40,403 bases of DNA from Paracidovorax anthurii (GTDB lineage: Bacteria > Pseudomonadota > Gammaproteobacteria > Burkholderiales > Burkholderiaceae_C): assembly GCF_003269065.1 (NCBI RefSeq), contig NZ_QLTA01000047.1, positions 1-40,403 on the forward strand. Direction: 5' to 3'. Within the stretch, counting starts at the first letter, position 1; every line of letters begins with the position of its first letter. The translations under genes and the position numbers were made by a program. Shown here one piece after another: positions 21,845 to 27,453 of this stretch. The notes beneath the pieces are model-generated. The model made no database searches, was not told the DNA's origin, and saw only the letters and a program-made list of their open reading frames with translations.

Positions 21845-21898
21845 AAGTGCTTCTTCGAGAACCGGCCGAAGTCCGGCGAAATATCGTGCAACGAGCGA

Positions 21899-22540
21899 TT
21901 ACCACCGCAGCCACTGCCGACCTGCGAGTGCGCCAAGCACCGCCGACATGCCCATCCCGAGCACGTACCAGATCGCGACGAACGGGGCCTGCATCTCAGG
22001 GCAGTGCAGCGAGTACACGCAGGCCCCCACCGCGCCGGCCAGCCAGCCGGCCGCGGCGCCGGTCAGCACGGGCCGCGTCGGCGCCAGCCCGCGCAGCGCC
22101 CACAGCAGCCCGAGGCCGATCGGAAGCGCCGTCACCGTCACGTTAAACGCGCAGGTGCGCCAGGTCGTGCCCAGCACCAGCGGCATCCGCGCCGCCGGCT
22201 CCGCCATCCACAGCCCCACCGCCGCCCAGATCCACAGCAGCGACACCGGCAGCCAGACGCCGAGCCACCAGCCGTTCATCCGTGCGCCCGGATGCCCGAG
22301 CCGGAACACCACGACCAGCCCGGTCGCCGCGACCGCCAATGGCATCGCCACCTTCTGCCAGAAGGCCGCCGTGCCCATCACCTGCGCCAGGTCGGCGCGG
22401 ATGCCATAAGCGCCCTGCACCCAGGCCAACGCCAGCGCGAGGCCCATACCCAGTGCGATCGCGAAACGACGCTCGCCCACCCGCACCGGCACCGGGTTGG
22501 CCTGCCGCGCGAGCAGCCCGATCAGCTCGTCAGTCTTCAT
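21899..22540 (-). CDS. nrsF: NrsF-type membrane anti-sigma factor (DUF1109)
   Basis: A 213-residue inner-membrane protein with six predicted hydrophobic segments, the DUF1109 architecture of NrsF, which holds a SigF-type ECF sigma factor inactive until metal or oxidative stress is sensed. Cysteines are at 130 (WRTCAFNV), 174 and 180 ([11 protein letters not shown]). The 130/180 pair has the position and spacing I recall for the two conserved sensor cysteines of Caulobacter NrsF (131/181). The start ATG at 22540 overlaps the sigma stop as ATGA and has AAGGA seven bases upstream; the ATG at 22555 is less likely. The short cytoplasmic N-terminus ([13 protein letters not shown]) would contact the sigma factor. 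Confidence 0.88.
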
Positions 22541-23082
22541 GTCATGTCCTTCCATAACCGCGCCATCGCCTTGAGCCCGCGGTGCACGCCGACCTTCACC
22601 GCCGATTCGCTCATCCCCGTCAGCTGCGCCGTCTCCTGCACCGACAGCCCCTCGAGCTTCGTATGCACGATCGGCAACCGCTGGTTTGTCGGCAGTTGCT
22701 CCAGCAGCCGTCCCAGATCGCGGCGCGATTCACCCGCCTCGTGATCCGCCGTCGCGAAAACCGCCAGCTCGTCGTCCAGCGGATCATGCAGCGCCTCGCG
22801 GCGCTCGCGCCGCCGCCACAGGTCGACCAGCTTGTAGCGCGCCACCGCATGCACCCAGGCCGTCAGCGGCTCGCCGCGCCGGTAGCTCTGGCGCTGCGTG
22901 TGCACCGCCATCAGCGTCTCCTGCACGAGGTCCTCGACCTCGTCCGGCAGCTGCTGCAGCCGGCGCCGGAAGTACCCGCGAAGCAAGGCCCCCAGGCGCT
23001 GCAGGAAGCGGTGGTAGGCCGCCGCATCCCCGTCCAGCCCGGCGACGAAGAGGTCGTGCAGCTCATGCTCGGTCGCGATCAT
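22537..23082 (-). CDS. sigF: ECF RNA polymerase sigma factor, SigF type
   Basis: A 181-residue extracytoplasmic-function sigma factor. Region 2 spans about residues 22-92 ([18 protein letters not shown], then [17 protein letters not shown]). Region 4 spans about 122-175 ([25 protein letters not shown], then [17 protein letters not shown]). Pairing with a DUF1109 protein places it with the SigF/ECF16 group. The longest frame starts at 23100, but a promoter -10 element (CGAAT) covers that region. ATG at 23082 lies 7-8 bases downstream of it and is therefore the likely start, giving a leaderless message. Its stop overlaps nrsF. Confidence 0.9.
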
Positions 23083-23089
23083 GGGATCT

Positions 23090-23117
23090 ATTCGCGTCAT
23101 GGGGATGGAAGGTTACA
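23090..23117 (-). promoter_or_regulatory. SigF-type promoter for the sigma/anti-sigma operon
   Basis: On the minus strand, TGTAACC (23117-23111), 16 bases, then CGAAT (23094-23090). It has the same elements and spacing as the promoter at 23159 and agrees with the GTAACC/CGAA pattern known for Caulobacter SigF promoters. It implies autoregulation. Confidence 0.82.
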
Positions 23118-23158
23118 GGGCCTCCGAAAAAAATAATCGAGGACTTTTTCGGTGCGGC

Positions 23159-23186
23159 TGTAACCCGGCGCCCCGCCGCCGCGAAT
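23159..23186 (+). promoter_or_regulatory. SigF-type promoter for the bufferin operon
   Basis: TGTAACC at 23159-23165, 16 bases, then CGAAT at 23182-23186. Transcription would start near 23193, leaving a leader of about 65 bases before the DUF2282 gene. The -35, spacing and -10 are identical to the divergent copy on the other strand. Confidence 0.85.
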
Positions 23187-23257
23187 TAGCTCTCGGAACG
23201 CAACGGCAGTCCGCCGCGTTCATCCTCAACCTCGCATCCATGCACAAGGAGTTCCCC

Positions 23258-23533
23258 ATGAAGTCGACCACCCTGAGCCTTGCCCTGGTCACGCTGACCG
23301 CGCTGTCCACCTCCGCCATGGCGCAAGACGCCAAGCCCGCAGCCGAAAAAGAGCGCTGCTACGGCGTCGCGATGGCCGGCAAGAACGACTGCGCCGCCGG
23401 CCCCGGCACCACCTGCGCCGGCACCTCGAAGATGGACTACCAGGCCAATGCCTGGAAGTACGTGCCGGCGGGCACCTGCACCTCGATCAAGACGCCCAAG
23501 GGCATGGGCTCGCTGGCCCCGGTGAAGTCCTGA
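23258..23533 (+). CDS. bufA1: Bufferin-family precursor peptide (DUF2282)
   Basis: A 91-residue secreted small protein. Residues 1-22 are a Sec signal peptide (cleavage after SAMA, before QD). The mature part has four cysteines at 34, 45, 53 and 74 in the DUF2282 pattern [31 protein letters not shown]2282 proteins next to DUF692 and DUF2063 genes are bufferins: ribosomally made peptides whose cysteines are modified by the DUF692 enzyme and which help cells withstand excess copper in the periplasm. ATG at 23258 has AAGGAG just upstream; the longer frame from 23081 would include the promoter and is rejected. It is the first gene of a four-gene operon read from a SigF-type promoter. Confidence 0.9.
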
Positions 23534-23546
23534 CCGGATCCGCGCC

Positions 23547-24395
23547 ATGTCACGCACGCTGGGCGCGGGCCTGGGCTTCAAGCCGGATTTCGCCGAGGAC
23601 GCGTTCGCCGCGCGCGAAGCGGGTCTGTGGTTCGAGGTCCATCCCGAGAACTACCTCGTCGCGGGCGGCCCGCGCCTGGCGCTGCTCGAGACCCTGCGCG
23701 CGACGCATCCGCTGTCGCTGCACGGGGTGTCGATGTCGCTGGCCGGCACCTCGCCGCCGGACCCCGACCACCTGCGGCGCTTCGCCGCGCTGGTCGACCG
23801 GCTGCAGCCGGCGCTGGTGTCCGAGCACCTGGCCTGGAGCCGCTTCGGCGGCGCCTACGCGCCAGACCTGCTGCCGGTGCCCCGCACCGGCGAATCGCTG
23901 CGTCTCGTCGCCGACAACCTGCAGCGCCTGCAGGACGCGCTGCGCCGGCGCGTCGCGATCGAGAACCCCTCCCACTACCTGCCCCTCGCCCATGACTGGG
24001 GCGAGGTCGATTTCCTGCATGAGCTGGTGCGCCGCACCGGCTGCGGGCTGCTGGTCGACGTGAACAACGTGTTCGTGTCGGCGAGCAACCTGGGTCTGGA
24101 CGCTGCCCCGTGGATCGACGCGATCGACGGCGACGCGGTCATGGAAATCCACCTCGCCGGTCATCGCGCCGACGCGGATACCTCGACCGGCCTGCTGATC
24201 GACAGCCACGACGCACCGGTCGCGGAACCGGTCTGGGCGCTGCTCGAGCGCCTGACGGAGCGCATCGGCCCGCGGCCGACGCTGCTCGAGCGCGACGGGA
24301 ACCTTCCGCCGTTCGGTGCCTTGATCTCGGAACGCGGCCGGGCGCAGGACGCGCTCGATGCCGCGGCCACCGCACCGACGGAGGTCCCCGCATGA
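23547..24395 (+). CDS. bufB1: MNIO (DUF692) enzyme modifying the bufferin
   Basis: A 282-residue TIM-barrel protein of the multinuclear non-heme iron-dependent oxidative enzyme family. Candidate metal ligands are visible in order: Glu30 (WFEVHPENY), His59 (SLHGVSMSL), Glu93/His94 (SEHLAWS), Glu139 (AIENPS), Asp171/Asn173 (VDVNNV), His202 (EIHLAGH), Asp219/His221 (IDSHD) and Glu249 (LLERDGNLP). In studied systems such enzymes oxidatively convert peptide cysteines into heterocycles. It starts 13 bp after the peptide gene and ends with a 4-bp ATGA overlap with the next gene. Modification of the neighbouring peptide before export is inferred from the family and context. Confidence 0.92.
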
Positions 24396-25138
24396 CGCTC
24401 GTCGAATTCCAGGACGCGTTCTGGCGCGACCTCTGGGCCGAACCCGGCGCCGCCGTGGCCCGGCCCGCCGCCTTCAACGTCTACCGCAACACCGTCCTCA
24501 AGGGCTGTGCCGATGCGCTGATCTCGCACTATCCGGCGGTGCACCGCCTGAGCGGCGATGCCTGGATGCAGGCGGTCGCGCTCGATCACGCGCGCACAAC
24601 CCCTCCCACCGGCGGCGACCTGCAGCATTACGGCGAGCATTTCCCTGCGTTTCTCGACCAGGTGCTGGCGGGCTCCGAGCTGCCCTGGCTGGCCGAAGTG
24701 GCGCGGCTCGACCGGCTCTGGAGCGAGAGCCACGTTGCCGCCGACGCGCCGCAACTGACACTGCCCATGCTGACGCGGATCGATGCCGAGCGGCTCGCCC
24801 ATTCGCGGCTGGTGCCGCATCCCGCGGCGCGCTGGCGCTGGTGCGCCGACTGGCCGGCCTTCAGCCTGTGGCAGGCCGCGCGCGAGGCGGCCGCCGACCC
24901 GAACCCGCCGCACTGGGTGGGCCAAGGCGCGCTGATGGTGCGGCCGGCGGGCGCCGTCCTCGGTCGGGAGATCGACGCCGCCGACTGCGCGCTGCTGGAC
25001 GCCTGCGCGGAGGGCCAGCCGCTGGGCTCTGCGCTGGAGGCCGTCCAGACCGGCTTTCCCGACTTCGACCCCGGCGCCGCGCTGGGCCGCCTGCTGGACC
25101 ACGGCGCATTCGCCGCCGCCATGGAGATGCCATCATGA
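24392..25138 (+). CDS. bufC1: DUF2063 partner protein (BufC-type)
   Basis: A 248-residue protein of the DUF2063 family, which accompanies DUF692 enzymes and is thought to present the precursor peptide to them. The N-terminal helical domain shows the family pattern [20 protein letters not shown] (residues ~28-47), and the C-terminal half, ending FAAAMEMPS, forms the second domain. The start ATG overlaps the bufB stop; the longer frame from 24110 lies inside bufB and is a shadow. The stop overlaps the next start as ATGA, so all three are translationally coupled. Confidence 0.9.
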
Positions 25139-25680
25139 ACACGATCACCCCGACGCCCTCGCCGTCCGCCTCCTCCGCCGCCGCCGCCGCCGCGACGGCA
25201 TCCCAGTCGGCCTCGCCGACGCTGCTTACCGCGATCCGCGACCGGCTGGAACGCTGGATCTCCCACGACCTGATCGCCCTGGCCTGCCGCTTCAGCATCG
25301 CGGGCGTGTTCTGGCTGTCGGGCCGGACCAAGGTCGAGGGCTGGTTCACGTTGACCGACACGACCTTCCTGCTGTTCCGCCAGGACTACGCGCTCCCGCT
25401 GATCCCGCCCGAATGGGCCGCCTTAATGGCCACGACGGCGGAGCACGTGCTGCCGATCCTGCTGGTGCTGGGCCTCGGCACCCGGCTGGCCGCTGCAGGT
25501 GTGCTGGGAATGACGGCGGTGATCCAGACTTTCGTCTACCCGTCGGCGTGGCCCACTCACCTGAGCTGGGCGGCTCCCATGCTCGTCCTGCTGGGACGCG
25601 GCCCGGGAAGATGGTCGTTGGACGCCGTGTTCACGCGTGTCATCAAGTCTCGAACCGCTCCATCAAGGTCACAAGGTTAA
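25135..25680 (+). CDS. DoxX-family membrane protein, last gene of the bufferin operon
   Basis: A 181-residue membrane protein with a Ser/Ala-rich N-terminus and about four hydrophobic helices ([69 protein letters not shown]). The GRTKVEGW and GPGRWSLD segments are typical of DoxX proteins found in bufferin/gig-type operons, where their role is unclear. The start overlaps bufC by ATGA. The last ~12 residues ([10 protein letters not shown]) are read antisense from a chemoreceptor remnant, so the natural C-terminus was probably altered where the island joined older DNA. Confidence 0.85.
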
Positions 25681-26360: not shown

Positions 26361-27365
26361 TCATCCAGCCTGGGGCGCGCTTCGGCTTGACAGCAGCGGC
26401 GGTTCGGCTGTCACGAGTCGAAGGAGCCCTTGGATGATTTGCTGAGGATCGTCGTTGGCATCGAGCACCGCCTGCCTCACGCGCAGGTGCAGCCTGTCCT
26501 CTGGCAGGGTGGCTGCATCGTACAAATGATCCATGACGAGCAGCGCGTTGCCAAGGCTCAGCCCCGGATCCTGTGCTGGTTCCAGGCCAGCAACGATATT
26601 GATGGCATTGTCGAGTGCTTCGGTGTGCAGGAGCGACTGAACCTCGATCCGTCCGGCCGGCTGAGGGTCGATCGGCATGGCCTGCCTATTGGCGCGCGGA
26701 TGCGGTCGAGGATCCACCGCGATGGCCACTGCCAGCCCTGCCGCGGCGAGTATGAAACCTTGAGCTGCCTCCCTCAAGCCTCGGTCTTGTTCGTCAGGCA
26801 GAGTGCCGGGCCCACCCACCCACAGGCCTCCGTGCACCATCATGCCAAGTCCTCCTGCAGCAACGACAGCACCTGCGTCCGCAAGCCTCGCGCGTGGATC
26901 CTGCTGCAACTCATTGATGATGAGGACCCCTGCCTGGGCCAGCGCGCCACCTGCCCGCAGGACCCCTTCAACCGTCTGCCATGCGGCCGCTGCCGCTTCC
27001 TGCGTGGCGGCTGCAGCTTGAACTGCCGTGTCTCTCAATGCGGCACCTGTCTGGACAGCCGCGTGTTGCGCTGCGGCCGCTGCTTGGCTGGCTGCGCGCT
27101 GCACCGTCGAGGCCGTGTGAAAGGCGGCCTGTCGCAGCACGGTGGCAGTCCTCTGAAAGTTCCCGGCTGTCGGCAGCGCAGCCCGCGGCACGGATACGGT
27201 GTCGCCACTGGAGGGAGGGGGCGGCCGATTCGCCAGGTCGCTCGTCACCTCCCGACCGTGCGACCGGGACGTGGAACGACGGGTCGAGGGTTGATCGACG
27301 GCCTCCTCGGCCGCATGGCGTGCCGGCAGGGCCGGCATACCAGACGATGATGTGATTGAAACCAT
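26361..27365 (-). CDS. Unrecognised protein, candidate type III effector
   Basis: A 334-residue protein that I do not recognise. The N-terminus is Ser/Thr/Pro-rich (MVSITSSSGMPALPARHA; SDLANRPPPPSSGDT at ~42-56), as in type III secretion signals. Residues ~76-136 are an Ala/Gln-rich helical, probably coiled-coil stretch. Two hydrophobic segments follow (~163-185 and ~200-217), then an acidic helical C-terminal region. ATG at 27365 has GAGGG six bases upstream, while the longer frame to 27410 would run through the predicted promoter. A PIP box with a near-consensus -10 lies upstream. HrpX-type control and secretion are inferred; a membrane-active effector or a translocon-like protein are both possible. 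Confidence 0.65.
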   Translation of the reverse strand: MVSITSSSGMPALPARHAAEEAVDQPSTRRSTSRSHGREVTSDLANRPPPPSSGDTVSVPRAALPTAGNFQRTATVLRQAAFHTASTVQRAASQAAAAAQHAAVQTGAALRDTAVQAAAATQEAAAAAWQTVEGVLRAGGALAQAGVLIINELQQDPRARLADAGAVVAAGGLGMMVHGGLWVGGPGTLPDEQDRGLREAAQGFILAAAGLAVAIAVDPRPHPRANRQAMPIDPQPAGRIEVQSLLHTEALDNAINIVAGLEPAQDPGLSLGNALLVMDHLYDAATLPEDRLHLRVRQAVLDANDDPQQIIQGLLRLVTAEPPLLSSRSAPQAG

Positions 27366-27392
27366 AGCAGCCCTCACGAAACGAAAAGCACC

Positions 27393-27453
27393 ATCGTCGT
27401 GACGCGACACACGCGTCGCCTGCGCAGCGCGAAGTCTTTTCCACGAAGCCGAA
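27393..27453 (-). promoter_or_regulatory. PIP box and -10 element (Hrp regulon promoter)
   Basis: On the minus strand, TTCGG (27453-27449), 15 bases, TTCGC (27433-27429): an exact fit to TTCGB-N15-TTCGB. Exactly 30 bases downstream is GACGAT (27398-27393), which meets the YANNNT rule except for its first base. The start codon at 27365 and its ribosome binding site follow at a natural distance. Confidence 0.72.

What the first reader, a model, noticed from the sequence alone, without database searches (positions are those of the whole stretch)
21899..25680. Complete bufferin (copper-stress RiPP) locus with its own SigF/NrsF control pair
A DUF2282 peptide with signal sequence and four Cys, a DUF692 MNIO enzyme with all expected His/Asp/Glu ligands, a DUF2063 partner and a DoxX protein are joined by short gaps or ATGA overlaps. 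The divergent unit is an ECF sigma factor and DUF1109 anti-sigma factor. This is a self-contained sensing, regulation and peptide-modification cassette in a likely plant pathogen, where host copper and copper pesticides are relevant. Gene content is seen; modified peptide chemistry and copper binding are inferred from studied relatives.
Basis: partly seen in the sequence, partly recalled or inferred. Interest (0 to 1): 0.88.

Follow-up and report, generated by a model that had tools for sequence, protein, structure and literature searches.

The report
Horizontally acquired copper-bufferin gene cassette
This is an ordinary, complete set of genes for making a small copper-soaking peptide together with its own on/off switch, a known kind of system, which here seems to have arrived from another bacterial lineage at a spot where foreign DNA lands.

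Summary
Window 21899-25680 holds six intact genes: NrsF (DUF1109) anti-sigma and ECF sigma factor (minus strand); DUF2282 peptide (BufA), MNIO enzyme (BufB), DUF2063 partner (BufC) and DoxX (plus strand). It is a member of the Buf1 bufferin kind, already described in Caulobacter. I add: (1) two back-to-back ECF16-type promoters lie between the units, the only exact GTAACC-N16-CGAA sites in the 5.47-Mb genome, so the predicted regulon is this cassette; (2) 59 of 80 relatives have such a pair, a box-reversed control 0 of 80; (3) the cassette looks horizontally acquired: BufB nests in a Mitsuaria/Roseateles clade (100/99), yet the host's RNase G is 73-75% identical to theirs and 88% to Delftia's; (4) it sits in about 9 kb of DNA absent between aminotransferase and RNase G in 3 of 16 same-genus genomes. 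"Plant pathogen" could not be tested. Copper binding and sensing stay inferred, and published phenotypes are mixed. Verdict: new member of a known kind.

The parts
21899..22555 (-). nrsF: anti-sigma factor (DUF1109/NrsF), 218 aa, conserved Cys135 and Cys185; membrane topology taken from Caulobacter NrsF, not predicted here
   Evidence: Pfam NrsF 222 bits; Cys135 kept in 67 of 70 and Cys185 in 66 of 70 aligned sequences
22537..23082 (-). sigF: ECF sigma factor, 181 aa from the likely true start at 23082; its 3' end overlaps the nrsF start
   Evidence: Sigma70_r2 and r4_2, PRK12536 above cut-off; start placed from promoter position and relatives
23091..23117 (-). ECF16-type promoter of sigF-nrsF: TGTAACC-N16-CGAA; the start codon follows 8 nt after CGAA, so the message may be leaderless or nearly so (inference)
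   Evidence: pair conserved in relatives
23159..23185 (+). ECF16-type promoter of bufABC-doxX: TGTAACC-N16-CGAA, 72 nt upstream of the bufA ATG
23258..23533 (+). bufA: DUF2282 Buf1 precursor, 91 aa, N-terminal signal-like segment, Cys34, 45, 53, 74
   Evidence: Pfam DUF2282 91 bits; the four Cys invariant in 80 of 80 aligned sequences
23547..24395 (+). bufB: MNIO (DUF692) peptide-modifying enzyme, 282 aa
   Evidence: PF05114 308 bits; NF050167 MNIO_BufB 334 over cut-off 310; invariant His/Asp/Glu/Asn set in 81 of 81
24392..25138 (+). bufC: DUF2063 partner protein with RRE-like C-terminal half (PME type 1), 248 aa
   Evidence: Pfam DUF2063; AlphaFold2 model pLDDT 89.5; top PDB match 3dee NGO1945, then chain A of the TglHI complex
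25135..25680 (+). doxX: DoxX-family membrane protein, 181 aa
   Evidence: Pfam DoxX 60.5 bits
18967..28026 (.). DNA absent between aminotransferase and RNase G in three same-genus genomes (edges approximate): aldehyde dehydrogenase, LysR, the buf1 cassette, an ORF without Pfam match and an integrase remnant
   Evidence: alignment ends of the two flanks are 29-70 bases apart in L135, L136, L137
27591..27971 (-). tyrosine-integrase remnant (126-aa ORF, Arm-DNA-bind_3 domain only)
   Evidence: Pfam PF13356 62.6 bits

Best explanation
It is a complete Buf1 bufferin cassette with its own ECF16-type SigF/NrsF switch, acquired horizontally from a Mitsuaria/Roseateles-like lineage. NrsF sits in the inner membrane and holds SigF. 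Excess copper (or another thiol-reactive stress) acting on its two conserved cysteines frees SigF. SigF then fires the two back-to-back promoters, raising sigF-nrsF and bufABC-doxX. BufC binds the precursor and presents it to BufB, which turns the two central cysteines (45 and 53) into 5-thiooxazoles. The product is exported by Sec and chelates copper in the periplasm, with Cys34-Cys74 as a disulfide. DoxX is a membrane helper of unknown role. Shown here: genes, motifs, promoter pair, phylogenetic conflict, empty sites. Inferred from studied relatives: chemistry, export, copper binding, sensing.
For: Family scores. Four BufA Cys 80 of 80, a BufB His/Asp/Glu/Asn set 81 of 81, NrsF Cys135 67 of 70 and Cys185 66 of 70. 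Promoter pair: two exact GTAACC-N16-CGAA sites in the whole genome, both here, against one site for the backward control pattern; expected 0.02 in the window for the TGTAACC form; a divergent pair in 59 of 80 relatives against 0 of 80 for a box-reversed control. It fits the printed ECF16 consensus (T/C)GTAAC-N17-CGAA (PMC8315932, passages). Homologs of all six genes and the promoter pair lie on the C. metallidurans CH34 megaplasmid. Lateral origin. BufC model matches NGO1945 and the TglHI partner.
Against: No direct evidence that this copy is expressed, modifies its peptide or binds copper. Published phenotypes are mixed: the corresponding C. metallidurans cluster is reported not to affect copper resistance, perhaps masked by other determinants (PMC8224329, passage), and Caulobacter SigF, CC2906 and CC3255 are reported as not essential for metal resistance (PMC3511200, section heading). 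The NCBIfam NrsF equivalog model scores below its cut-off (136 of 300). SigF was not found in 13 of 80 relatives and NrsF not in 11 of 80, though some of those contigs are short. Direction of transfer rests on one protein tree and one housekeeping comparison. (Confidence lowered from 0.85 to 0.83 on adding the two published phenotypes.)
Confidence: 0.83

Rival explanations
1. The switch mainly senses oxidants (hypochlorous acid, chromate, disulfide stress) at the NrsF cysteines, and copper is only one of several triggers; bufferin is then one arm of a thiol/redox response.
For: A Brucella pair of the same kind answers hypochlorous acid and drives a putative methionine sulfoxide reductase operon (PMC8315932, abstract and passages); Caulobacter SigF controls genes in the response to chromium and cadmium (PMC3511200, abstract).
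Against: Caulobacter SigF genes rise with copper in all conditions tested there and a sigF mutant is copper-sensitive (PMC8224329, passages); [quoted passage not shown] No exact second SigF-type site, for instance before an msr gene, was found in this genome.
Confidence: 0.2
2. The cassette is ancestral in the host genus and was lost in most species; similarity to Mitsuaria/Roseateles reflects slow evolution.
For: A second genome of the genus, G013, also has a Buf1 locus.
Against: The G013 copy is on another contig, its BufB is 61% identical, and G013 is one of the three genomes whose aminotransferase-RNase G site is empty. The window BufB is sister to a Mitsuaria protein at 100/99 support while RNase G is closest, among 20 named genomes compared, to Delftia.
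Confidence: 0.08
3. The locus is a decaying passenger in an island and no longer works.
For: An integrase remnant lies 1.9 kb away and the DNA to the right of the cassette is lower in G+C (0.639 against 0.706).
Against: All six frames are open; conserved residues, Cys and both promoters are kept.
Confidence: 0.05
4. The DUF2063 protein is a DNA-binding regulator of the operon rather than an enzyme partner.
For: Pfam still calls the domain 'putative DNA-binding' and NGO1945 was first read that way (PMC2954202, start of abstract in the search listing).
Against: The fold matches NGO1945 and the TglHI partner chain; PMC12452194 (section 18) and PMC12668002 (part of the results) treat such proteins as MNIO partners.
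Confidence: 0.03

Closest known systems
Caulobacter sigF-nrsF / CC3254-CC3257 (CCNA_03363-03366) locus, taken as the bufferin 1 locus
   Same: DUF2282, DUF692, a hypothetical protein (taken as the partner) and DoxX genes under SigF (PMC8224329, passages); reported start site of CC3254 at -61 (PMC3511200), here 72 nt from CGAA to the bufA ATG
   Different: Caulobacter SigF drives further operons (CC2907-2905 and an msrPQ-like pair); here no exact GTAACC-N16-CGAA site lies outside the cassette
Cupriavidus metallidurans CH34 locus on NC_007974.2 (taken from recall as the gig operon; tags were not matched)
   Same: Homologs of all six genes and the divergent promoter pair
   Different: 41-62% protein identity
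Mitsuaria sp. GD03876 locus (L021)
   Same: 89.5% nucleotide identity over 21895-25623, same promoters
   Different: The 2.3-2.7 kb of flanking DNA held does not match; its genome's RNase G is 74% identical
Oxazolin/HvfABC-type loci
   Same: MNIO, DUF2063 partner and DoxX-like protein
   Different: HvfB, HvfC and HvfX models all below cut-off (220 of 360, 23.6 of 142, 40.7 of 80); DUF2282 precursor instead of EGKCG repeats

Membership tests
Buf1 bufferin | DUF2282 precursor with signal peptide and four conserved Cys | tested here: met
   DUF2282 91 bits; four Cys 80 of 80; signal segment read by eye, no predictor run
Buf1 bufferin | MNIO enzyme of the bufferin-maturase type | tested here: met
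   NF050167 334 over cut-off 310
Buf1 bufferin | PME type 1 partner: DUF2063 plus RRE-like domain, about 250 aa | tested here: met
   DUF2063, 248 aa; fold matches 3dee and TglHI chain A, TM-scores 0.53-0.63, rmsd 5.5-8.2; sequence searches of the PDB found no partner protein
Buf1 bufferin | Thiooxazole on the central Cys, copper binding, copper protection | not testable with these tools
   Needs mass spectrometry and growth tests
ECF16 SigF/NrsF switch | Sigma gene next to a DUF1109 anti-sigma factor with two conserved Cys | tested here: met
   PF06532 222 bits; Cys135 and Cys185
ECF16 SigF/NrsF switch | Target promoter (T/C)GTAAC-N17-CGAA | tested here: met
   Both promoters fit; consensus from PMC8315932
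ECF16 SigF/NrsF switch | NCBIfam NrsF equivalog NF042994 cut-off | tested here: not met
   136.4 bits, cut-off 300; a homolog, not assigned as that equivalog
ECF16 SigF/NrsF switch | NrsF releases SigF under metal stress | not testable with these tools
   Reported for Caulobacter under chromium (PMC3511200, abstract)

The most novel reading that the evidence does not exclude
The whole copper module, with its own sigma factor, anti-sigma factor and private promoter code, moves between lineages as a regulatory island of about 3.7 kb that needs nothing from the new host's regulators; the one-cassette regulon and the near-leaderless sigF start are what make it portable.
Probability: 0.55. Interest if true: 0.42.

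Novelty: new member of a known kind. Interest (0 to 1): 0.27.

Why it matters
The system itself is known. The useful part is that this copy looks like a clean natural transplant: a sigma/anti-sigma pair with two promoters and no exact target site elsewhere in the genome, in a genus where 15 of 17 genomes searched show no DUF2282 match. That makes it a tidy object for asking whether bufferin loci spread as autonomous copper-tolerance cassettes and what NrsF really senses.

Tried and rejected
Considered and rejected: a wider SigF regulon in this genome. One mismatch in TGTAACC-N16-CGAA gives 14 sites (the two exact ones included) against 16 for the backward pattern. In the 15 genus genomes without DUF2282 the exact shorter pattern occurs 0-3 times each, the backward control 1-6 times; G013, with its own cassette, has 5 sites, two of them at that cassette. 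Plasmid search: of 245 records with a match none covers 80% of the cassette; the best listed are C. metallidurans at 67% and two Pseudomonas plasmids at 39%. The search for 'bufferin' alone listed only 'buffering' papers. PDB sequence searches with BufC found only chance-like carbonic anhydrase matches or nothing before the fold comparison. Whether any of the four FHIPEP genes belongs to a type III secretion system was left untested (searches failed).
Full report
Observation. The junctions are a 13-bp gap (bufA-bufB) and two ATGA overlaps. The sigma factor probably starts at 23082: on the minus strand CGAA is followed by TAGATCCC and then ATG, and the four Mitsuaria/Roseateles relatives displayed have GTG at that point. 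Starting at 23100 would put the start codon inside the promoter.

Conserved residues. With the window included, BufA keeps all four Cys in 80 of 80 sequences, and BufB keeps a set of His, Asp, Glu and Asn residues in 81 of 81 (for example H59, E93, H94, E139, D171, N174, H202, D219, H221, E248). That these include the iron ligands is recalled from the family, not mapped on a structure here; the solved relatives 3bww, 8hci and MbnB are matched by sequence. NrsF keeps Cys135 in 67 of 70 and Cys185 in 66 of 70. I take these as C131 and C181 of Caulobacter NrsF, whose replacement raises SigF-dependent expression and which probably face the periplasm (PMC3511200, abstract and sections 7 and 9 read). 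BufC Cys205 and BufB Cys166 are each invariant in 81 of 81, for which I have no explanation.

Partner protein. The BufC model (20 sequences, pLDDT 89.5) has NGO1945 (3dee) and chain A of the TglHI complex (8hci, 8hi7) as its three best PDB matches (E 6e-5 to 3e-4, TM-scores 0.53-0.63). Chain A is taken as TglI. This supports an enzyme-partner role over a DNA-binding one.

Promoters. GTAACC-N16-CGAA occurs twice in the 5.47-Mb genome, both times between sigF and bufA, one on each strand, boxes back to back 44 bp apart; the backward control pattern occurs once. So the count is not remarkable, the place and orientation are. Chance expectation in the window is 0.02 for the TGTAACC form. Of 80 relatives, 59 carry a divergent pair within 200 bp, against 0 of 80 for a control with each box reversed; 38 of the 59 have a spacing of 38-57 bp. 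An exact site lies near bufA in 67 of 80 and upstream of the sigF match in 53 of 80. The pattern fits the printed ECF16 consensus (PMC8315932, abstract and passages). With one mismatch allowed there is no excess over control, so the predicted regulon is the cassette itself.

Relatives. In the 80 loci, BufC was found in 80, BufA in 79 (the missing one, L042, begins 17 bp before bufB), DoxX in 75, NrsF in 69 and SigF in 67. C. metallidurans CH34 has homologs of all six genes and the promoter pair. A conjugative Pseudomonas plasmid has the cassette with NrsF but no detectable SigF. NrsF itself was found in 37 of 200 genomes drawn from the host's family.

Lateral origin. DUF2282 is present in 2 of 17 same-genus genomes searched, this one included. 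The window BufB pairs with Mitsuaria sp. GD03876 at 100/99 support, inside a seven-row set (100/100) whose other six members are all Sphaerotilaceae (midpoint root). Of six loci compared at DNA level (L021-L026), the best is 89.5% identical over 21895-25623, and in all six the matches lie within the cassette, give or take four bases. Of 20 loci whose genomes I compared (20 of the 80), host RNase G is 88% identical to Delftia sp. PS-11, 79-82% to the other Comamonadaceae included, and 73-75% to the six Mitsuaria/Roseateles/Rubrivivax genomes. So gene tree and host disagree.

Landing site. I fetched the DNA downstream of RNase G from 16 same-genus genomes and list alignments over 150 bases. In 3 of 16 (G007, G013, G016) the aligned aminotransferase and RNase G ends are 29-70 bases apart, without the intervening 9 kb. 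In 4 of 16 (G010, G011, G012, G015) other DNA of 2.7-9.3 kb lies there. In 9 of 16 the left flank was not seen within the stretch, one of them (L123) because its contig ends after 2.1 kb. The window's own stretch holds an integrase fragment near its right edge. This fits an insertion hotspot; whether the aldehyde dehydrogenase and LysR genes came with the cassette is open. G013 has its own, distinct Buf1 cassette elsewhere.

Known or new. Caulobacter SigF/NrsF with the DUF2282-DUF692-hypothetical-DoxX genes and their copper response are in print (PMC3511200; PMC8224329, passages). PMC12452194 (abstract, sections 4, 14, 17, 18 and passages read) reports sigma and NrsF genes in Buf1 clusters, thiooxazole chemistry, and modification of the central Cys with a disulfide between the outer two. 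PMC12668002 (abstract, part 1 of 3 of the results, and passages read) unites these products as captophorins. Against a simple copper story, PMC8224329 (passage) reports no effect of the C. metallidurans cluster on copper resistance, and a section heading of PMC3511200 says SigF and two of its genes are not essential for metal resistance. Acquisition of a gig-type operon on an integrative element is printed for Legionella (PMC5413113, passages). One full-text search for DUF692, horizontal, copper and DUF2282 (nine papers listed) showed no title or abstract start on a transfer or site like this one, the Legionella paper apart; I did not search further. So the cassette is a new member of a known kind; the lateral move and one-cassette regulon are modest additions.

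Noticed in passing
G000 contig C5:114404-115183 (L001): Second MNIO locus of this genome: MNIO and DUF2063 genes follow a 457-aa protein with a partial ferritin-like match (over its cut-off) and a Cys-rich stretch with repeated CAGQG-like motifs, a possible long, unusual substrate. None of the other 16 genus genomes searched has a counterpart MNIO gene.
   Followed up: partly
window 23117-23159: Between the two promoters, A-rich and T-rich tracts (CCGAAAAA...TTTTTCGG) lie symmetrically upstream of both -35 boxes; by eye, A/T tracts recur there in many relatives. Possibly UP-type elements or a further operator.
   Followed up: partly
BufC Cys205 (window about 25004-25006) and BufB Cys166 (about 24042-24044): Each is invariant in 81 of 81 sequences with no role known to me.
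   Followed up: no
L140 (NZ_CP083747.1, 61495-66357): Buf1 cassette on a conjugative Pseudomonas plasmid keeps nrsF and both promoters but has no detectable sigF, so it may rely on a sigma factor encoded elsewhere.
   Followed up: partly
window 26364-27410 (-): 349-aa Ala-rich ORF without any Pfam match, in the DNA missing from three relatives.
   Followed up: no
G000 contigs C24, C34, C42, C60: Four FlhA/SctV-family (FHIPEP) genes, more than one flagellum needs; not classified.
   Followed up: no
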